Origin: Phycisphaerales bacterium
GTDB lineage: Bacteria > Planctomycetota > Phycisphaerae > Phycisphaerales > SM1A02
Direction: 5' to 3'
Length of the DNA stretch: 32,272 bases
NCBI GenBank assembly: GCA_009692015.1
Contig: SIAB01000011.1
Location: 1-32,272, forward strand
The notes beneath the pieces were generated by a model. It did no database searches. It was not told the DNA's origin and saw only the letters and a program-made list of their open reading frames with translations. Shown in pieces: positions 3,176 through 17,962 of the stretch; positions within the stretch are counted from its first letter, which is position 1; each line of letters begins with the position of its first letter. The position numbers and the translations under genes are program-made.

Positions 3176-3448
3176 ATGGCACGGGCAGTGGTCGATCCCA
3201 ATGAACTGCGGCGATTTGCAGCCGATTTGCGCAAGTTCAATCAGGATCTGCAATCTGGAATCTCAACGATCGGTGGGCGAATGAATACCCTCGCCCAAAC
3301 CTGGCGAGATCAAGAACAGCAGAAGTTCGCCGAAGAATTCGACCAGACCCTGAAGGTCTTGCAGCGACTGATGAAGGTCAGCGAGGAGCACATTCCGTTC
3401 CTGCTGCGCAAGGCAGATCGAATCGACGAATATCTCCAGCAGCGCTAG
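3176..3448 (+). CDS. WXG100/ESAT-6-like small helical protein
   Basis: 90 aa, two predicted helices separated by TWRDQEQQKFAEEF (W-x-D variant of WXG), typical length, directly upstream of an FtsK/EssC-like ATPase. Confidence 0.78.
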   Translation: MARAVVDPNELRRFAADLRKFNQDLQSGISTIGGRMNTLAQTWRDQEQQKFAEEFDQTLKVLQRLMKVSEEHIPFLLRKADRIDEYLQQR

Positions 3449-3458
3449 GCCTCCTGCG

Positions 3459-4079
3459 ATGGATACCGGCGCCAACCTCCGCGACACCCGAACCATCATG
3501 GCGGCCAAGGCGGTTCTGACCAAGGCTGCGCGAAGTTTTGGGTCGGCGATTGAAGAGTCGCAGTCAGACGCGGAGCGATTCGGAATGTGGCTCACGGGCG
3601 AGGGTCCCACTTTCTGGGAGGGTCAGCGCCGCAAGCTGACAGAAAAACTGAACATCGATCGCGCCGCGCTTTTCCGAAAGCAGATTCAGATGACCGCTGA
3701 TGGGCGGCCGCCCTCGACCGTCGATGAGAAGAAGGCCGTGGTTCGTGCCGAGCACGCTGTCCGTCATGCCGAGCATTGCCTGCGCGAGTTGCGGAGGTGG
3801 TCCATCGAATATCAGCGCGTACTGGCTCAATTTCGGGCCGGGATGGGGCCCCTCTCAACCTATGTCGACCAGATCGTGCCCGCTGCGGTGATCGCGCTCA
3901 ATCGCATGGCTGAGTCGATTGATGCCTACATCTCGACCGCCCCCGCTGCGGTTGACGATACAGCCCAAACGGCCGGCGACCAGACTGCGATTCGCGATCC
4001 AGCGAGCGCTCAACAGCCTGATCAATCGATGCGCCGCGGAGGATCGGACGCTCGGCCCGAGAATCCCCCCAATGAGTGA
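3459..4079 (+). CDS. Hypothetical predominantly helical protein in WXG100/EssC-like locus
   Basis: 206 aa ORF with helical composition to about residue 165 then a low-complexity polar tail; same strand, 10 nt after the WXG100-like gene. No family recognised. Confidence 0.7.
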   Translation: MDTGANLRDTRTIMAAKAVLTKAARSFGSAIEESQSDAERFGMWLTGEGPTFWEGQRRKLTEKLNIDRAALFRKQIQMTADGRPPSTVDEKKAVVRAEHAVRHAEHCLRELRRWSIEYQRVLAQFRAGMGPLSTYVDQIVPAAVIALNRMAESIDAYISTAPAAVDDTAQTAGDQTAIRDPASAQQPDQSMRRGGSDARPENPPNE

Positions 4080-4290
4080 CGCAACCCACAAGGCGAAACT
4101 GAAGGACACGGTGCGCGTGCTCCGCGAGCAGTGGCGCACGCTGCGACAGGATTGGAACGACCCCGCGAGCGCCGCAATGGAGCGCGACGCGGTCGATCCC
4201 GCAGACGACGCCGTTCGGATCGCGATTCTCGCGCTCGACCAACTCGCAGAAGCAGTTTCGCGGGCGCGCCGTGACTGCGATGCACGGTAA
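4072..4290 (+). CDS. Small (72 aa) helical protein, possible second WXG-like partner
   Basis: ATG at 4072 overlaps the upstream stop by 8 nt (ATGAGTGA). Protein MSDATHKAKLKDTVRVLREQWRTLRQDWNDPASAAMERDAVDPADDAVRIAILALDQLAEAVSRARRDCDAR: helix, tryptophan-containing turn, helix. Confidence 0.6.
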   Translation: MSDATHKAKLKDTVRVLREQWRTLRQDWNDPASAAMERDAVDPADDAVRIAILALDQLAEAVSRARRDCDAR

Positions 4291-4315
4291 CGCGATCGAC
4301 TGGCGCGCTTTCTCT

Positions 4316-4321
4316 TATGAT
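4316..4321 (+). promoter_or_regulatory. Putative -10 element TATGAT, 7 nt before the ATG at 4329
   Basis: CTTATGAT-TCGCAGC-ATG; matches the window-wide TAnnnT-N(5-10)-start pattern and argues for the start at 4329 over 4317. Confidence 0.4.
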
Positions 4322-4328
4322 TCGCAGC

Positions 4329-7300
4329 ATGGCGTCGTCTACCGGTGATCAACAGACGCTCCGCGGTCAGGACCTTCCCATTTTGGGAGGGCGCATTCTG
4401 AAAACTCTCATGGATGCCACGGCGGCGCGACTTGAAGCGGAGCGGTCGCTCGCAGCGTTTCTGGTTGACGCGCAGGATCCCGAGTCGCGTCGGCATGCGG
4501 AGGAATTGAATCGAGCGCGGGAATCCCGCGATCACGGTCGCGTCGAAATCCTTGAAAAACAAGTGGCCGCGCGGGCTGCGGCAGAGCGCCGCGCCGGGCG
4601 AGCCGGCACGACCATCGATGTGCGCGAGCGCGCTTCTCTCGACTCCGTTTCAGAGGCGTGCGAGAAACGGCTCGACTCGATCGCCTTGGATCACGAGACC
4701 ACGACATGGACTGCCGATGCGGTCTACGAGAACCTCGAGCCGCGGCCACGCATCGACTTTGAAACTGCGCGCGCGGCGATCGAGACGCGCTCACAGGAGA
4801 TCGCGGCGGTGGCTGAACAAGTCGAGCGACTTCTCAACCGGGCGCTGATCCGCGTGAATCGGATGGACGAATCGATCACGCGCGGTGCCCCTGACCTGGG
4901 TAACCGAAGCTGCGCGCGGCTCGAAGAGCAATTCGTTCTCGCAAGGCGGGTCCTCGAAGGTGTTCGCAAGGAGTCGGTTGCCCTCATCATGCGCAATTGG
5001 CTCTCACACTTCGCTCTGGCGGCGGTGGTGATCGCCGCCCTCTACGTCGCCCGCGGTCTGGCGGTGGGAACGGACTTCTCGTTCAATCGGGCGCTGTTTG
5101 GTGCTGCCATCGGTCTCCTCCTGCTCATCCAAATCGTGGTGTGGTACTGGGCCGGGCGGCGGTTGGTGGGATTCGCAGCGGCGATCACAACCATTCGCGC
5201 AACCGCGCTTGAATTGCAGCAACTCGCACTGGTGGGGGCGGCCCAACTGCGAAAGGAGCAGGAGACTGTCTTTCGCAGGCAGCATCGCGCGGAACGCTCC
5301 GCAGTCGACCTCGCGGCGCAACCGAAGCGACAGGAGGCCGCGGCCCGCGCCGCATCGCGCAGCGAGGAGATACGCGCGATTGCCCTGCGCGTGCGCCGTG
5401 CCGCGGTCGAACAAGGTGAAGCTGCGCTTCAGCAGGTCGAAGCGGATGCCTCGCGCGCATTTGAGACTCTTCACCTTCAGTACGACGCGGATCTCGATGC
5501 GGAAGAGACGCGTCATGCCAATCGGCTTCGCGAGATCGCCGCCGTCCACGCAGCTCGCAACGAACTGCTACGGAGTGAATGGAAGGCAGCGCGGGACCAG
5601 ATCAGAGCCGACACGAAGAGTGTGACGTCCATCGAGCAGCAACTCTTTCCCGCGTGGGCTCATCCTTCGTGGGAACGATTTGCGGGGCAGGCAGAATCAA
5701 TCGGTGGGGCGCGGCTGGGAACGCTGACCATTCCAATGCACGCGATTCCTGGAGCGCTCCCGGTTGATCCCGACCTGGCGTGGCCCGCTGGATCCCCGCG
5801 AATCCTGAATGTTCCAATCGCACTTTCGTTTCCCTCTAACGCGTCGCTGCTGATCGAGACGGGCCAGGAGGGGCGCACGGCTGGGATCGCCCTTCTGCAG
5901 GAAACGATCCTGCGAATCTTGACGGCGCTGCCACCCGGTCGCGCCCGATTCACCATCATCGATCCCGTGGGTCTCGGCGAACCCTTCGCAGCATTCATGC
6001 ACTTGACGGATGAGGCGGAGCATGTGATCGGCGAGCGAATCTGGACGGATCCGCGGCACATCGAGCAGCGGCTCGTCGCGCTCTGCGAGCACATGGAGAC
6101 TGTGATTCAGAAATTCTTGCGAAACGAATTCGAAGACATCGATGCCTACAACGCGCAGGCGGGAGAAATCGCCGAGTCCTATCGCTTCCTGGTGCTGGCG
6201 GATTTCCCCACTGGACTTTCGGACACCGCTGCCCGACGGCTGGCGAGCATCGTTAACAGCGGCGCGCGCTGCGGTGTCTTCACGATCATTCTGCGCGACA
6301 CCCGCCAGCCCGTGCCGCCGGAGATTGACATCGCCGACATCCGCAGTCGATCGCTCTGCGTCCACTGGAGCGATGAACGCCTGGTGGTGAGCGCCGCCCC
6401 CTTCAAGGACTTCGCCTTCACCGCCGGATCGGTGCCCGCGAGCGATGCCATGATCGCGCTTCTGCGGCGAATCGGCACGACGGCAAAGAACGCCCGGCGC
6501 GTCGAGGTGCCCTTCGCCGCCATCGCCCCCCGCGAGGAGGAGATTTGGACTGAGTCTGCGTCACGGTCGATCTCGGTTGCACTCGGACGGGCTGGGGCGA
6601 TGCGACTTCAGGCGATCACCCTTGGCGTTGGGACGAGTCAACACGCACTGATCGCGGGCAAGACAGGTTCTGGAAAGTCGACCTTGCTCCACGCGCTGAT
6701 CACCAATCTCGCCCTGCGCTACAGCCCGGATGAAGCCGAGTTATGGTTGGTCGACTTCAAGAAGGGTGTTGAGTTCCGCACCTACGCGACCAATCAACTC
6801 CCCCACGCCCGCGCCGTTGCCATCGAGAGCGACCGCGAGTTTGGACTCTCGGTGCTGCGCGGGCTCGACGGTGAACTGCGACGCCGCGGCGACATCTTTC
6901 GCGATCGATCGGTGCAGGATCTTGGCGGCTACCGGCGGCTTGGCCTGGCCGAAGTGATCCCGCGCACTTTGCTGATCATCGACGAGTTTCAGGAACTCTT
7001 CACGGAAGATGACAAGGTCTCCGAAGAATCCGCTCTCCTTCTTGATCGCCTGGTGCGGCAGGGTCGGGCGTTTGGAATCCATGTGATTCTCGGATCGCAG
7101 ACGCTTGGTGGTGCCTACTCAATCGCCCGCGCCACGATGGGGCAGATGGCAATTCGTATCGCCCTGCAGTGCAACGAGGCAGACTCGCAGCTCATTCTTG
7201 CCGATGACAATGTTGCCGCACGCCACCTGTCGAGGCCAGGCGAAGCGATCTATAACGATGCCGGTGGTCTCGCCGAGGGCAACAACCCATTCCAAGTTGT

Positions 7301-8243
7301 CTGGCTGCCTGATGATGAACGGGATCGCTTGCTTGCCAAGCTGCGGGATCGCGTTGCGAAGTCGCCGCCGTCGAACCGACCACCGATGATCGTGTTTGAG
7401 GGAAGCGCCGCCGCGCTGCTCGAAGAGAACCGACTGATGCAGCGGGCGAGATCTATGCGCAGCAAGCACGCTGCACCTGCGACGCCCCTGCTCTGGTTCG
7501 GCGATGCGATCTCGATCAAGGATCCCACTGCGGTGGCGCTCCGTCGACAAACCGGAACCAACATCATGATCGTCGGTCAGCGCGAGGACGCGGCTCTGGG
7601 AATTTCAGCGGGAGTGCTGGTCTCACTCGCGGCGCAGATTCCCGCAGGTCACTGCCAAGTGCACCTGATCGACGGCACGCCGCCGGATGCCCCCGAGTTT
7701 GGAAAACTGGCATCATTGCATCAGCAGCTGCGGCTTGGGGGGTCCTGTGGCGGACTCCGGGACTGCGATTCAATTCTGGCAACCGTCGCCGCCGAACTCG
7801 TCAAGCGCCAATCTGACCACAGCACGCTCGCGCCGACCTGGCTGGTGCTCGTCCACGCCGCACATCGGTTCCGTTCGCTGCGACGCAACGAGGAGGACTT
7901 TGGTTATGGATCGACCAGTGAGAAGGCTCCGACCGCAGACAAGCTGCTGGCGACCGTCGCGCGCGATGGGCCGCAGGTTGGCATCCATGTCCTGGTGACC
8001 TGCGATGGCGCGACCAACTTGGCGCGAACATTCGATCGCAACGCCATTCGCGAGTTTGAGTGGCGACTGCTCTTCCAAGTCAGCGCTTCTGATTCCAGCA
8101 CCTTGATCGACTCGCCGATCGCGAGCAGACTCGGTCCACAGCGGGCTCTCTTGCACAACGAAGAGACAGCCATTCAAGAGAAGTTCCGTCCCTACGCCTG
8201 GCCCGAGCCGCGCTGGATTGAACAATTCATGGCCGCGGATTGA
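4329..8243 (+). CDS. EssC/EccC-like membrane-anchored FtsK/SpoIIIE-family ATPase
   Basis: N-terminal coiled region, two TM helices (FALAAVVIAALYVARGLAV and ALFGAAIGLLLLIQIVVWYWAG), second coiled region, then Walker A GKTGSGKST (6657-6683) and Walker B TLLIIDEFQELF (from 6966), with VILGSQTLGG; flanked by degenerate ATPase-like modules. Track start 4317 is also possible. Confidence 0.88.
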   Translation: MASSTGDQQTLRGQDLPILGGRILKTLMDATAARLEAERSLAAFLVDAQDPESRRHAEELNRARESRDHGRVEILEKQVAARAAAERRAGRAGTTIDVRERASLDSVSEACEKRLDSIALDHETTTWTADAVYENLEPRPRIDFETARAAIETRSQEIAAVAEQVERLLNRALIRVNRMDESITRGAPDLGNRSCARLEEQFVLARRVLEGVRKESVALIMRNWLSHFALAAVVIAALYVARGLAVGTDFSFNRALFGAAIGLLLLIQIVVWYWAGRRLVGFAAAITTIRATALELQQLALVGAAQLRKEQETVFRRQHRAERSAVDLAAQPKRQEAAARAASRSEEIRAIALRVRRAAVEQGEAALQQVEADASRAFETLHLQYDADLDAEETRHANRLREIAAVHAARNELLRSEWKAARDQIRADTKSVTSIEQQLFPAWAHPSWERFAGQAESIGGARLGTLTIPMHAIPGALPVDPDLAWPAGSPRILNVPIALSFPSNASLLIETGQEGRTAGIALLQETILRILTALPPGRARFTIIDPVGLGEPFAAFMHLTDEAEHVIGERIWTDPRHIEQRLVALCEHMETVIQKFLRNEFEDIDAYNAQAGEIAESYRFLVLADFPTGLSDTAARRLASIVNSGARCGVFTIILRDTRQPVPPEIDIADIRSRSLCVHWSDERLVVSAAPFKDFAFTAGSVPASDAMIALLRRIGTTAKNARRVEVPFAAIAPREEEIWTESASRSISVALGRAGAMRLQAITLGVGTSQHALIAGKTGSGKSTLLHALITNLALRYSPDEAELWLVDFKKGVEFRTYATNQLPHARAVAIESDREFGLSVLRGLDGELRRRGDIFRDRSVQDLGGYRRLGLAEVIPRTLLIIDEFQELFTEDDKVSEESALLLDRLVRQGRAFGIHVILGSQTLGGAYSIARATMGQMAIRIALQCNEADSQLILADDNVAARHLSRPGEAIYNDAGGLAEGNNPFQVVWLPDDERDRLLAKLRDRVAKSPPSNRPPMIVFEGSAAALLEENRLMQRARSMRSKHAAPATPLLWFGDAISIKDPTAVALRRQTGTNIMIVGQREDAALGISAGVLVSLAAQIPAGHCQVHLIDGTPPDAPEFGKLASLHQQLRLGGSCGGLRDCDSILATVAAELVKRQSDHSTLAPTWLVLVHAAHRFRSLRRNEEDFGYGSTSEKAPTADKLLATVARDGPQVGIHVLVTCDGATNLARTFDRNAIREFEWRLLFQVSASDSSTLIDSPIASRLGPQRALLHNEETAIQEKFRPYAWPEPRWIEQFMAAD

Positions 8244-8265
8244 GCAGTTTTGCGCCTGCTTTCGC

Positions 8266-8271
8266 TATGAT
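8266..8271 (+). promoter_or_regulatory. Putative -10 element TATGAT upstream of tRNA-Val
   Basis: GCTATGATCC, 10 nt before the tRNA 5' end; the identical 10-mer sits at the same distance before tRNA-Arg. Confidence 0.5.
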
Positions 8272-8281
8272 CCCGCCTCTT

Positions 8282-8355
8282 GGGCGCTTAGCTCAGTTGG
8301 CTAGAGCACTGCCCTTACATGGCAGGTGTCACAGGTTCGAATCCTGTAGCGCTCA
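8282..8355 (+). tRNA. tRNA-Val (anticodon TAC)
   Basis: Full cloverleaf: acceptor GGGCGCT/AGCGCTC, D arm GCTC..GAGC, anticodon stem CTGCC-CTTACAT-GGCAG, T arm ACAGG-TTCGAAT-CCTGT; CCA not encoded. Confidence 0.97.
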
Positions 8356-8359
8356 TTTC

Positions 8360-8365
8360 TATTCT
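8360..8365 (+). promoter_or_regulatory. Putative -10 element TATTCT, 9 nt before the FlgI-like ATG
   Basis: CTATTCT-TGGACCGTC-ATG immediately after the tRNA; no Shine-Dalgarno. Confidence 0.3.
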
Positions 8366-8374
8366 TGGACCGTC

Positions 8375-10246
8375 ATGCGTGTGATCATCTTCTCCATCCT
8401 CGTCTGCAGCGCGCTGGTCGTCTGCCTGATTGGTTGCTCGAATGTCGAAAGGGCGGATCGCAGCCTCGCGACCAAACGCGTCGAGCGCGCGTCGATCCCC
8501 ATGGATGTTGATCCGATCATGCGCGGCACGGTGGCGAGTGAGACGATTGTCATGGGGTATCAGCCGGTCGTGGTCCGCGGCTATGGATTCGTGACTGGAC
8601 TCAAGGGCACCGGGAGTCGCACCGCCCCGGCAGAAGTGCGTCAGTACATCTTGCGCGAGATGTCGCGCCACGGCGTTGGGGAATATTCCGGGCAATCCCA
8701 AATTCTCGATCCCGAAGCGCTTCTGAGCTCGGATAACACGGCGATCGTGATCGTGGAAGCGCTCATCCCTGCTGGTGCTCCGCGCCACACAAAGTTCGAT
8801 GTTCGGGTTTACGCCGCTCCTGGAACGAGCACCACCAGTCTCGAGGGTGGCAACTTGTGGACCACCGACCTGCGACCCGGAGTCCTGTTGGTTGGAAGTC
8901 GCTCCTCGCGGGCGATTGCCGAGGCCAAGGGACCGATCATCATCAACCCCTTTGCCGACGATTCGAATCGAAGTCAAACGATGGTGAATCAACTCAGTGG
9001 TCGCGTGCTCAATGGTGGCAATTCCACGCGCGAATTGCCCATTCGACTGGTGATGGCGACACCGAGTCATTCCCGAACGCGCTTGATCACGAGTGCCATC
9101 AATTCAGGCTATCCCCGCGAGCCGACCCAGCGCGGTGAAACGGCAATCGGGCAGTCGGGTGAGATGATCACCGTCTCGGTGCCACCATCTTGGCGCGACC
9201 ATTCCGACGAGTTCGTCGAACTGCTTCGTCATACCTCGGTCAATGTCGGTCCAATTGATGCGACGGCCACCGCTATCAAGAGCGCGCTCACCAACAACCC
9301 TGGAGCGGCAAAGTCGGCCAGCCTTCGTTGGCAGGCATTGGGTCCAAAGAGTTTCGGTTCGATTCGATCTCTCTATGACTACTCAGAAGAGCAACCGCGC
9401 TTTGCGGCGCTGCAGGCGGGGGCGCGCCTCGACGATGCGCTGGTCGTGCCGCACTTGTTGCTGATGGCCACCTCGGGGAGTACTGAATTGCGCGTCCCCT
9501 GTATTCGCCTGCTCGAACGGATGAGTCTCAACCCGGCAATCGATCTTGGACTGCGCCCGCTTCTCAACGACAGCGACATTGATGTGCGATTGGCCGCCTA
9601 CGAGGTTCTGCGGGCTCGTCGCGACCCGATCGTTCACAGTCAAATGGTCGGGAAGAAGTTTCGAATCGATGTCGTACCCAGCAGTTTCCCCATGATTTAT
9701 GTGAGTCAGTCTGGCGAGCCGGCGATTGCCATCTTTGACGATGCCATGCGGGTCACCACCCCGCTCACCCTGCGTGCTTGGGATGGCGATCTCATGTTCA
9801 AGGGAGAAGCGAGCGCCGACACCCTCGAGGTCTTTTTTCGCCGCGGTTCGGGCATCACGCCGCTGGTCGAGAAAGTCAGCGTCAAGGTGCCGGAACTCAT
9901 TCGTTTCTTGGGTCATACTTCCGACGCCGCCCACCCTGCGCCCGGGCTCGGGATGACCTTTAGTCAGACCATTGGCGCGGTGCACGCGCTCTCAGTCAAT
10001 GGGTCTCTCACGGGTCCGCTCAAGATGGAACAGGATCGGATCCTTGCCGCCATCGCCAAAGCTGGTTCAGAAGCGGAGCGCACGGATAGACCGGAATTCA
10101 TAGACGACGAGGTCGTCCCGGACGCCAACCAGCCATCTATCGCGGCCGACGTGGTGCCCGGCTTGACGCCGCGACTTGGGAGTGGCCCGCCAAACTCGAC
10201 CGCTGTCGATCCAAACGCGAAGAGTCGCGATACAGTACCGCGGTAG
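8375..10246 (+). CDS. FlgI (flagellar P-ring)-domain lipoprotein with HEAT-like C-terminal part
   Basis: Signal/lipobox MRVIIFSILVCSALVVCLIGC; FlgI-like GYGFVTGLKGTGS, NTAIVIVEALIPAGAPRHTKFDVRVYAAPGTSTTSLEGGNL and NGGNSTRELPI. Track start 8240 would read through the tRNA, so ATG 8375 is used. Confidence 0.8.
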   Translation: MRVIIFSILVCSALVVCLIGCSNVERADRSLATKRVERASIPMDVDPIMRGTVASETIVMGYQPVVVRGYGFVTGLKGTGSRTAPAEVRQYILREMSRHGVGEYSGQSQILDPEALLSSDNTAIVIVEALIPAGAPRHTKFDVRVYAAPGTSTTSLEGGNLWTTDLRPGVLLVGSRSSRAIAEAKGPIIINPFADDSNRSQTMVNQLSGRVLNGGNSTRELPIRLVMATPSHSRTRLITSAINSGYPREPTQRGETAIGQSGEMITVSVPPSWRDHSDEFVELLRHTSVNVGPIDATATAIKSALTNNPGAAKSASLRWQALGPKSFGSIRSLYDYSEEQPRFAALQAGARLDDALVVPHLLLMATSGSTELRVPCIRLLERMSLNPAIDLGLRPLLNDSDIDVRLAAYEVLRARRDPIVHSQMVGKKFRIDVVPSSFPMIYVSQSGEPAIAIFDDAMRVTTPLTLRAWDGDLMFKGEASADTLEVFFRRGSGITPLVEKVSVKVPELIRFLGHTSDAAHPAPGLGMTFSQTIGAVHALSVNGSLTGPLKMEQDRILAAIAKAGSEAERTDRPEFIDDEVVPDANQPSIAADVVPGLTPRLGSGPPNSTAVDPNAKSRDTVPR

Positions 10247-14129: not shown

Positions 14130-15185
14130 ATGTCCATTCGAGCGTTCATGCGTCACAATTTCAGGCACTTCAACGCGGCAACCGCGGTGGAGGCCTCCGA
14201 TGCCTACGCGGCACACATTGCCAGCGGCGGATCGATGATGGTCACGCTCGCTGGGGCGATGAGCACCGCAGAACTCGGTCTCTCGCTGGCCGAGATGATT
14301 CGTCGTGGATTGGTTCACGCCATCTCGTGCACCGGTGCCAATCTCGAGGAGGATGTCTACAACCTCGTCGCCCACAGCCACTACGAGCGCATTCCCCATT
14401 GGCGACAGCTGACCCCCGATGATGAGCAGAAGTTGCTCAATCGACATCTCAACCGCGTCACCGACACCTGCATCCCAGAAGAAGAGGCGATTCGCAAGAT
14501 CGAACGAGCGATTCTGGATGAGTGGACCCGGGCTGACCGCGCCAATGTGCAGTACTTCCCCCACGAATTCTTCTATCGCATCCTGCTCTCGGGTGTGTTG
14601 AAGAAGCACTACGAAATCGATCCAAAGGATTCCTGGCTGCTCGCCGCAGCGGAGCGCAATTTGCCGATGGTGGTGCCGGGCTGGGAAGACTCAACCAATG
14701 GGAACATCTTCGCATCGCACTGCATCGAAGGGCGAATCAAGAATGTGCACACCGTTCGCAGTGGCATCGAATACATGATGTCGCTCGCCGCGTGGTACTC
14801 AGAGACTGCGCCGAAATCCAGCATTGGTTTCTTTCAGGTCGGGGGAGGCATCGCCGGCGACTTTCCGATTTGCGTTGTACCGATGCTGCATCAGGATCTT
14901 GGGCGGCGCAAGATTCCGCTCTGGGGATATTTCTGCCAGATCAGCGACTCGACCACCTCGTATGGTTCTTACTCGGGCGCAACACCCAACGAGAAAATCA
15001 CCTGGGGCAAACTCAGCAAGAACACGCCGCGATTCATCGTTGAGAGTGACGCCACGATCGTCGCGCCACTGATGTTTCAGTATGTCATGGAGACACTCGA
15101 AACGAAGTCGGCTGCGAAGCCAAGTGCCAAACGCGCCAAGTCGAAAGGCGCGGCTCGCAAGCGGCCGCTCGCGGCGCGCAAGTGA
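14130..15185 (+). CDS. Deoxyhypusine synthase-like protein with basic C-terminal tail
   Basis: DHS-family SCTGANLEEDVYN, GFFQVGGGIAGDFPICVVPML and SYSGATPNEKITWGKL (conserved Lys in WGK). ATG 14130 preceded by GCGGAGG. Confidence 0.88.
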   Translation: MSIRAFMRHNFRHFNAATAVEASDAYAAHIASGGSMMVTLAGAMSTAELGLSLAEMIRRGLVHAISCTGANLEEDVYNLVAHSHYERIPHWRQLTPDDEQKLLNRHLNRVTDTCIPEEEAIRKIERAILDEWTRADRANVQYFPHEFFYRILLSGVLKKHYEIDPKDSWLLAAAERNLPMVVPGWEDSTNGNIFASHCIEGRIKNVHTVRSGIEYMMSLAAWYSETAPKSSIGFFQVGGGIAGDFPICVVPMLHQDLGRRKIPLWGYFCQISDSTTSYGSYSGATPNEKITWGKLSKNTPRFIVESDATIVAPLMFQYVMETLETKSAAKPSAKRAKSKGAARKRPLAARK

Positions 15186-16672: not shown

Positions 16673-17962
16673 ATGGATGACTTTCATTACCAGGATGGTT
16701 CACTCTGTTGCGAGGAAGTGCGCGCTGCCGATATCGCTCGGTCGGTATCGACCCCCTGCTATGTCTACTCTGCGGCAACGCTGCGCGGTCACTTCACGCG
16801 ACTGCGCGAGGCGTTTGCCAGCCTCAATCCACTGATCTGTTATTCGGTGAAGTGCTGTTCGAATCTGGCAATTCTGCGGCTCTTGACCGGTTTGGGAGCG
16901 GGAATGGATGTGGTTTCTGGCGGAGAAATCTTTCGCGCCCTGCAGGCGGGGGGCGATCCCAAGAAGTTCGTCTATGCCGGCGTTGGCAAGAGCGACGCAG
17001 AAATTCGATTCGCGCTCGACCAAGAAATTGGTCTCTTCAATGTCGAGAGCGAGATGGAGTTCGAGAATCTGGCCCGCATCGCCCGCGACCGCGGCGTTCG
17101 CACCCGGGCGGCCCTGCGAATCAACCCCGATGTCGATCCCAAGACGCATCGCTACACCACCACCGGCAAACGAGAAAGCAAGTTCGGCGTCGATCTCGAA
17201 CGAGCCATGGCCTTTTTTCGCTCCTTTGGTCACGATCCCTTTGTTGCGCTGCGCGGCATCCACTTGCATATCGGCTCGCCGGTCTATTCGACCGCGCCCT
17301 ATCTCGAGAGCGTGCTCAAGGCGCTCGCGCTCATTGACGATCTCGCAGCGCAGGGATTCGAGATTGACACCCTCGATCTCGGCGGCGGCTTCGGCGCCGA
17401 TTATGAGAGTGATCAGTCTCCACTTGCGGCGGAGTATGCCCGCGCCATCGTTCCAGTTCTTCAGGACCGCGTCGCGCGGGGACTCTGCATCATCCTCGAA
17501 CCCGGTCGCAGCATCGCCGCCAACGCCGGAATCTTGTTGACGCGCGTGGAATATGTGAAGAGATCCGGTGATCGAAATTTCGCCATCTGCGATGCGGGCA
17601 TGCACACGCTGCTGCGGCCCAGTCATTATGGAGCCTTTCACTTCGTCTGGCCGGTGGAATGCGATGCCTCCCTCGTTCCATCTCGGCGCGCCCGTGAACT
17701 CATCTTGCCTGGGCTTCAGCGCACCGAGGTTGTCGGTCCACTCTGCGAAACAGGCGATTTTCTGGCCGAGGATCGAATGCTTCCACCACTGGTGCGCGGA
17801 GATCTCTTGGCTGTCTTCACGGCCGGTGCCTATGGCATGGCTATGGCAAGTCGTTACAACAGCCATCCCCTGCCGGTCGAGGTCCTGGTGGATGGCGCGG
17901 CGTTTCGGGTGATTCGATCGCGCGAGACCTACGAAGACCTGATCCAACACGAGCGCGTGTAG
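16673..17962 (+). CDS. lysA: Diaminopimelate decarboxylase
   Basis: PCYVYSAATLRGHF, CYSVKCCSNLAILRLLTGLGAGMDVVSGGEIFRAL, HLHIGSP, DLGGGFG, EPGRSI, GPLCETGDFLAEDR and GAYGMAMASRYNSHPLP. Confidence 0.95.
   Translation: MDDFHYQDGSLCCEEVRAADIARSVSTPCYVYSAATLRGHFTRLREAFASLNPLICYSVKCCSNLAILRLLTGLGAGMDVVSGGEIFRALQAGGDPKKFVYAGVGKSDAEIRFALDQEIGLFNVESEMEFENLARIARDRGVRTRAALRINPDVDPKTHRYTTTGKRESKFGVDLERAMAFFRSFGHDPFVALRGIHLHIGSPVYSTAPYLESVLKALALIDDLAAQGFEIDTLDLGGGFGADYESDQSPLAAEYARAIVPVLQDRVARGLCIILEPGRSIAANAGILLTRVEYVKRSGDRNFAICDAGMHTLLRPSHYGAFHFVWPVECDASLVPSRRARELILPGLQRTEVVGPLCETGDFLAEDRMLPPLVRGDLLAVFTAGAYGMAMASRYNSHPLPVEVLVDGAAFRVIRSRETYEDLIQHERV

What the first reader, a model, noticed from the sequence alone, without database searches (positions are those of the whole stretch)
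3176..8243. Minimal type VII-like secretion locus: WXG100 + two small helical ORFs + EssC/EccC-like ATPase
Seen: a 90-aa WXG100-like ORF, a 206-aa helical ORF, an overlapping 72-aa helical ORF and a ~1300-aa membrane FtsK-type ATPase in one same-strand run. Established: WXG100 proteins and EssC/EccC ATPases are the shared core of type VII secretion, normally with further membrane parts (EsaA/EssA/EssB/EsaB or EccB/EccD/EccE). Inference: none of those is recognisable here; upstream is gabD and downstream a tRNA and a FlgI-like lipoprotein. This could be a stripped-down secretion apparatus in a diderm lineage, or a non-secretory WXG/FtsK machine.
Basis: partly seen in the sequence, partly recalled or inferred. 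Interest (0 to 1): 0.75.

Follow-up and report, generated by a model that had tools for sequence, protein, structure and literature searches.

The report
Toxin-free mini type-VII-like secretion cassette
Planctomycete bacteria carry a compact four-gene machine, made of a membrane-anchored motor and three small helical proteins, that looks like the bare core of a type VII secretion system without its usual partners and without any toxin; relatives of this machine were described before, usually as mobile units, and some of them carry nuclease toxins.

Summary
Confirmed: window 3176-8243 holds four same-strand genes: a 90-aa WXG100 protein (Pfam gathering score passed, but its motif is W-R-D), a 206-aa long helical hairpin, a 72-aa WXG100-like protein (4072-4290), and a 1308-aa ATPase with two membrane helices. 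The four behave as one unit: the order recurs with changing neighbours, and in 392 Planctomycetota genomes the 90-aa protein and the ATPase occur together in 59 and alone in 1 and 3, even where they lie 0.2-3 Mb apart. The ATPase resembles EccC/EssC rather than DNA translocases, but only the middle of its three domains keeps a Walker A motif. EssB and YukD were not found. This matches a described class, WXG plus EssC-like ATPase with only the middle domain active (Zhang 2012; CoCoNuT paper 2024; H. pylori HP0062/HP0066). New here: a resident, membrane-anchored, toxin-free version in Planctomycetota, and likely identities for the two small ORFs. On a Helicobacter plasmid the protein in the hairpin's position carries a C-terminal WHH nuclease next to an immunity gene, so the hairpin is probably a cargo carrier. 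Best reading: a T7SS-like exporter handling helical-hairpin complexes. Export itself is not shown.

The parts
3176..3448 (+). c1: 90-aa WXG100 protein with W43-R-D45 in the bend; closest solved relative by profile is H. pylori HP0062
   Evidence: PF06013 35.8 bits; 90 aa long in 75 of 81 gene-called orthologues; profile hits HP0062 3fx7 E 2e-12, B. anthracis EsxB 3e-10; 92-152 bits, one strong copy per genome in 60 of 392 Planctomycetota genomes
3459..4079 (+). c2: 206-aa long helical hairpin (helices 11-76 and 88-159) with a short low-confidence tail; cargo-carrier candidate; positional equivalent of nuclease-bearing proteins in mobile cousins
   Evidence: AlphaFold2 mean pLDDT 87, helices about 98; no Pfam family; single copy in 52 of 61 family genomes; weak profile links to plasmid cousins
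4072..4290 (+). c3: 72-aa short WXG100-like protein without the WxG motif (W-N-D or similar), C-terminal R-x-C
   Evidence: profiles of c1 and c3 find each other (E 1e-4 to 1e-2); TIGR03930 E 0.004; adjacent to c2 in nearly all loci
4317..8243 (+). EssC/EccC-like ATPase, 1308 aa: N-terminal region, two membrane helices (232-250, 259-277), charged helical region, then three tandem FtsK/RecA-like domains; Walker A GKTGSGKST (residues 781-789) only in the middle one
   Evidence: model pLDDT 85.7 with best PDB match EccC 4nh0 E 8e-29, FtsK 8.5e-14; one Walker A in 66 of 68 orthologues, two hydrophobic segments in 65 of 68

Best explanation
The locus is a stand-alone, chromosomal, membrane-anchored member of the T7SS-like class 'WXG100 proteins plus an EssC-like ATPase whose middle FtsK domain alone is active'. 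c1 and c3 (WXG100-type hairpins) and c2 (long hairpin) form a helical bundle that is recognised by the cytosolic domains of the ATPase ring. The degenerate first and third domains most likely serve as docking or regulatory modules, and the middle domain hydrolyses ATP to move the bundle or its cargo to or across the inner membrane. In a Helicobacter cousin the c2 position carries a nuclease and sits next to an immunity gene. The planctomycete form has lost, or never had, that cargo and is kept as a single-copy resident machine. Shown: gene set, co-conservation, domain architecture, membrane segments, predicted fold, absence of a recognised toxin domain on c2. Inferred: complex formation, hexamer, docking, export.
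For: Co-occurrence of c1 and the ATPase in 392 genomes is 59 both / 1 c1 only / 3 ATPase only, including six genomes where both lie on one contig 0.18-3.4 Mb apart. In 61 family genomes all six without the ATPase also lack c2. The units split in different ways (c1-c2 apart from c3-ATPase in one genome, c1-c2-c3 apart from the ATPase in others) yet are retained. The ATPase fold matches EccC/EssC best and its sequence matches EccC/YukB ahead of FtsK. Plasmid cousins have a similar set: Helicobacter (WXG; hairpin plus WHH nuclease, PF14414 E 1e-11; SUKH immunity, PF09346; 77 aa; FtsK), Caballeronia, Rhodococcus, Deinococcus. The class is described in PMC3482391, PMC11090510 and PMC4978471.
Against: No export, complex or localisation data exist. 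No EssB or YukD in 21 family genomes, and no way across the outer membrane is apparent. The plasmid cousins show no convincing pair of membrane segments, so membrane translocation is not a property of the whole class. No toxin domain was found, so no cargo is known; the longer planctomycete c2 proteins carry an Imm33-like domain instead. c1 lacks a C-terminal Y-x3-[D/E] export signal (C-terminus ...YLQQR).
Confidence: 0.55

Rival explanations
1. Non-secretory machine: a membrane-tethered FtsK-like motor that remodels or positions WXG-hairpin complexes for stress sensing or phage defence, with nothing exported.
For: Cousins sit in TerY-P-type (VWA, PP2C, Ser/Thr kinase, CARF) or TerD neighbourhoods and one has a TerD domain fused to the ATPase; these lack a clear membrane pair; PMC11090510 notes that a different mechanism is likely. 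c1 and c2 are single copy, with no family of substrates.
Against: The planctomycete ATPase has two membrane segments in 65 of 68 orthologues, and no Ter/VWA/kinase neighbours recur at the resident planctomycete loci as far as these were annotated. A nuclease plus SUKH immunity pair in Helicobacter is the mark of delivered polymorphic toxins.
Confidence: 0.3
2. DNA-translocating FtsK-type protein (chromosome segregation or conjugation) with unrelated small neighbours.
For: The middle domain matches FtsK_SpoIIIE and FtsK or TcpA structures at a lower rank.
Against: EccC/EssC models outscore FtsK by sequence and fold; a separate FtsK-domain protein (about 870 aa) sits elsewhere in the same genomes; no FtsK gamma domain among the Pfam hits; strict co-retention with WXG-type proteins.
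Confidence: 0.07
3. Decayed remnant of a mobile toxin-delivery unit that has lost its toxin and is drifting.
For: Mobile cousins carry a nuclease or nuclease-like domain; the resident form does not. The unit is absent from most Planctomycetota outside this family.
Against: c1 is kept at 90 aa with 65% mean column identity, the ATPase is intact with 56% mean column identity, and the genes are co-retained even when unlinked; this points to strong purifying selection.
Confidence: 0.05

Closest known systems
'Solo WXG' plus YueA-like ATPase with three FtsK domains, only the middle one active ('mobile versions of T7SS'; Zhang et al. 2012, PMC3482391, Table 1 footnote 6)
   Same: WXG100 protein; three tandem FtsK-like domains with only the middle one active; planctomycetes are named
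   Different: Described as mobile; here the unit is resident and near-universal in one family, has four fixed genes and two membrane helices, and has no recognised toxin
WXG100/EssC-like module of Type III-A CoCoNuT operons (PMC11090510)
   Same: EssC-like ATPase with only D2 active and a long N-terminal coiled coil; two WXG100-type proteins, one without the motif; one coiled-coil protein
   Different: CoCoNuT version lacks membrane helices, has a nuclease on the coiled-coil protein and a DNA-mimic gene; the planctomycete version has membrane helices and no nuclease, and its neighbours vary
H. pylori HP0062/HP0066 'WXG100 secretion system' (PMC4978471, PMC3397514) and the Helicobacter sp. NHP19-012 plasmid locus
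   Same: WXG protein of about 90 aa with W-x-D (HP0062 is the best solved relative of c1); hairpin-type protein; about 75-aa small protein; FtsK ATPase
   Different: The Helicobacter plasmid protein carries a WHH nuclease and is followed by a SUKH immunity gene; its ATPase is 823 aa with no clear membrane pair. The H. pylori chromosomal locus itself was not read here
Canonical T7SSa (ESX) and T7SSb (Ess/Yuk)
   Same: WXG100 proteins and an EccC/EssC-fold tandem ATPase in the membrane
   Different: No EssB or YukD found; catalytic domain pattern differs (EssC keeps D1 and D2 Walker motifs, per PMC11090510); no recognised effector

Membership tests
Canonical type VII secretion system (ESX/Ess) | WXG100 protein over the curated score | tested here: met
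   PF06013 35.8 bits over 27.3; TIGR03930 below its cut-off; WRD instead of WxG
Canonical type VII secretion system (ESX/Ess) | EccC/EssC-type tandem FtsK ATPase with membrane anchor | tested here: met
   fold best matches EccC/EssC; two hydrophobic segments; below the equivalog cut-offs of EccC/EssC
Canonical type VII secretion system (ESX/Ess) | Walker motifs in the first ATPase domain | tested here: not met
   only one Walker A, in the middle of three domains, in 66 of 68 orthologues (domains)
Canonical type VII secretion system (ESX/Ess) | Accessory parts EssB (PF10140) and YukD/EsaB (PF08817) | tested here: not met
   none over cut-off in 21 family genomes; B. subtilis control positive
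Canonical type VII secretion system (ESX/Ess) | Accessory part EccB (PF05108) | tested here: inconclusive
   none found, but no control genome rang
Canonical type VII secretion system (ESX/Ess) | Accessory parts EccD, EccE, EssA, EsaA | not tested
   no genome-wide search made for these; none recognised in the window
Canonical type VII secretion system (ESX/Ess) | ATPase-dependent secretion of WXG100 substrates | not testable with these tools
   needs a secretome
WXG/EssC-like ATPase with middle domain active (Zhang 2012; CoCoNuT module) | Three tandem domains, only the middle active | tested here: met
   (activity judged from motifs only)
WXG/EssC-like ATPase with middle domain active (Zhang 2012; CoCoNuT module) | Two WXG100-type proteins, one without the motif | tested here: met
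   c1 by Pfam, c3 by profile cross-match only
WXG/EssC-like ATPase with middle domain active (Zhang 2012; CoCoNuT module) | Coiled-coil protein with a nuclease domain | tested here: not met
   c2 is a coiled hairpin, but 71 of 82 have tails under 80 aa and 11 have tails of 176-203 aa, Imm33-like in five of the six scanned
WXG/EssC-like ATPase with middle domain active (Zhang 2012; CoCoNuT module) | Sequence relationship of the ATPase to the mobile cousins over all three domains | tested here: met
   planctomycete profile scores 270-547 bits on Helicobacter, Caballeronia, Deinococcus and Rhodococcus ATPases, mostly over the full region
DNA translocase FtsK/SpoIIIE | Closest match to FtsK, and FtsK gamma domain | tested here: not met
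   EccC/EssC rank first; no gamma domain in the Pfam output; a separate FtsK-domain protein exists
Known anti-phage defence system (PADLOC) | Match over the whole protein to a defence model | tested here: not met
   SspH and mad8 match only the shared ATPase domain; none for the three small proteins

The most novel reading that the evidence does not exclude
Planctomycetota have domesticated a toxin-delivery module into a resident, membrane-anchored, toxin-free WXG100 machine with its own physiological role: a fixed four-part T7SS-like exporter working in a diderm without any of the known accessory membrane proteins, a type distinct from T7SSa and T7SSb.
Probability: 0.35. Interest if true: 0.7.

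Novelty: new variant of a known kind. Interest (0 to 1): 0.47.

Why it matters
It defines a fixed four-part set that is a candidate for the smallest T7SS-like machine and is present in complete genomes of named isolates (Singulisphaera acidiphila, Limnoglobus roseus). That makes it testable whether WXG100 proteins and the ATPase alone suffice for export in a diderm. It also ties the long-orphan H. pylori protein HP0062 to a conserved gene set and suggests what the two unnamed small ORFs are.

Tried and rejected
Fold search with the 206-aa model gave only generic coiled coils (no hit at E below 0.001). PADLOC gave only shared-domain hits. The consensus promoter scan found nothing on the operon strand. 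Agrobacterium plasmid hits were judged to be a Dnd/Ssp-type FtsK from their neighbours and set aside. A Helicobacter-centred genome search was not possible with the handle available, so the H. pylori chromosome was not read. Anantharaman et al. 2012 (Ter systems) is not held and is known here only through PMC11090510 and PMC4978471. A divergent second locus in G043 (L070: ATPase, three WXG-like, 190 aa, 81 aa) was first taken as a link but groups with the mobile cousins in the ATPase tree. DNA translocase and decay readings were considered and rejected as above.
Full report
What is there. Window 3176-8243 encodes four genes on the + strand: c1 (90 aa), c2 (206 aa), c3 (72 aa; 4072-4290, overlapping c2 by 8 nt) and an ATPase (1308 aa). 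c1 passes Pfam WXG100, with W-R-D in the bend instead of W-x-G. c2 and c3 have no Pfam family; c3 has a faint WXG100 match (TIGR03930 E 0.004), and the family profiles of c1 and c3 find each other, so c3 is most likely a shortened WXG100 relative. c2 is predicted with high confidence as one very long helical hairpin with a short loose tail.

The ATPase. Sequence and profile comparison put EccC and YukB/EssC ahead of FtsK. The AlphaFold2 model of residues 441-1308 (mean pLDDT 85.7, pTM 0.63) matches tandem-domain EccC (E 8e-29) and EssC (8e-19) before FtsK (8.5e-14). TM-scores are modest (0.37-0.39 on the query for EccC), probably because the relative placement of the domains differs. Exactly one Walker A motif is present in 66 of 68 orthologues, in the middle domain of the window's protein (residues 781-789). 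Two hydrophobic segments are present in 65 of 68 (simple hydropathy, not a trained predictor). A separate FtsK-domain protein of about 870 aa sits elsewhere in the genomes.

One unit. In the window's own family about 55 of 61 genomes have the ATPase (some partial at contig ends) and 52 have c2, one copy each; the six without the ATPase also lack c2. The order c1-c2-c3-ATPase recurs with different outer neighbours and reaches contigs labelled Gemmataceae, Isosphaeraceae, Pirellulales and a few MAGs labelled Verrucomicrobia. Gene calls there were made with a simple home-made caller, backed by profile searches of all six frames. In 392 genomes of the phylum c1 occurs in 60 and the ATPase in 62, with 59 shared. 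In six genomes both lie on one contig but 0.18-3.4 Mb apart; in one genome c1-c2 and c3-ATPase are split, in others c1-c2-c3 stay together without the ATPase. Co-retention despite separation is strong evidence of joint function, although related genomes are not independent. Outside this family the unit is patchy: 5 of 21 other genomes of the order have c1.

Cousins in other phyla. Plasmid searches found a similar set in Helicobacter, Caballeronia, Rhodococcus and Deinococcus. The planctomycete ATPase profile scores 270-547 bits on them. In Helicobacter sp. NHP19-012 the c2 position encodes a protein ending in a WHH/colicin-type nuclease, directly followed by a SUKH (SMI1/KNR4) immunity gene, then a 77-aa protein and the ATPase. 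In Caballeronia the 436-aa c2 ends in a region with an ExK-like nuclease signature (read by eye, no Pfam hit). The Rhodococcus ATPase has an N-terminal TerD domain. The link of c2 to these proteins rests on position plus weak profile scores (E about 1e-8 to 1e-6 in small searches for Rhodococcus, Caballeronia and Deinococcus, none for Helicobacter), so it is probable rather than proven. In Planctomycetota 71 of 82 c2 proteins have tails under 80 aa; 11 have tails of 176-203 aa, which match Imm33-like in five of six scanned. In the ATPase tree the planctomycete sequences form one group (support 0.94) apart from the plasmid cousins, with the class-level lineages mostly together; this fits a resident rather than freely moving gene set, although the family is not strictly monophyletic.

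What it does. Shown: composition, architecture, co-retention, a single Walker A, membrane segments, no recognised toxin domain on c2. Inferred from EccC/EssC and from the toxin-bearing cousin: c1-c3 form a helical bundle read by the ATPase, the degenerate domains dock it and the middle domain drives movement. Whether anything crosses the membrane is open; no route through the outer membrane is known, and the mobile cousins appear soluble by hydropathy.

What is known. [quoted passage not shown]). A 2024 study describes the same module in CoCoNuT operons with two WXG100 proteins and a coiled-coil nuclease, lacking membrane helices, and cites an earlier remark that it can stand alone (PMC11090510). 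A pan-genome study lists a 'WXG100 secretion system' in H. pylori and calls WxG plus FtsK (paralogues HP0062, HP0066) a minimal set of T7SS (PMC4978471). HP0062, with WRD, is the closest solved relative of c1 (PMC3397514). The locus is therefore a new variant, not a new kind. Its new features are the fixed four-gene make-up, membrane anchoring, absence of toxin and immunity genes, and vertical-looking retention in Planctomycetota.

Limits. The host genome is an 86% complete MAG. EssB and YukD were searched in 21 genomes with working controls; EccB had no positive control; EccD, EccE, EssA and EsaA were not searched.

Noticed in passing
window 8375-10246: FlgI-like (flagellar P-ring, PF02119 E 6e-19) protein of 623 aa with possible HEAT repeats and a lipoprotein-like start; it recurs near the cassette in several relatives.
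   Followed up: partly
window 14130-15185: Deoxyhypusine synthase-like protein (PF01916, E 7e-38) in a bacterium, not far upstream of an Orn/DAP/Arg decarboxylase (16904-17962), perhaps polyamine-related.
   Followed up: no
L070 (G043:C188) 3209-8857: Second, divergent cassette in a family genome: ATPase, three WXG100-like genes, 190-aa coiled protein, 81-aa protein; near a Fic-like gene; its ATPase groups with the plasmid cousins.
   Followed up: partly
L200 4834-8802: Rhodococcus plasmid ATPase of this class with an N-terminal TerD domain (PF02342, E 4e-19), next to TerD genes.
   Followed up: partly
L104:4127-5194, L087:3552-4604, L099:4313-5383, L078:4572-5633, L121:1486-2517: C-terminal Imm33-like domain (PF24719) fused to the c2 hairpin in some planctomycetes: an immunity-type domain where a Helicobacter cousin carries a nuclease.
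   Followed up: partly
L043, L057, L058, L066, L182: In one subgroup the ATPase follows a topA-like gene and c1-c3 are not next to it; in G045 they sit 183 kb away in the order c2-c3-c1.
   Followed up: yes
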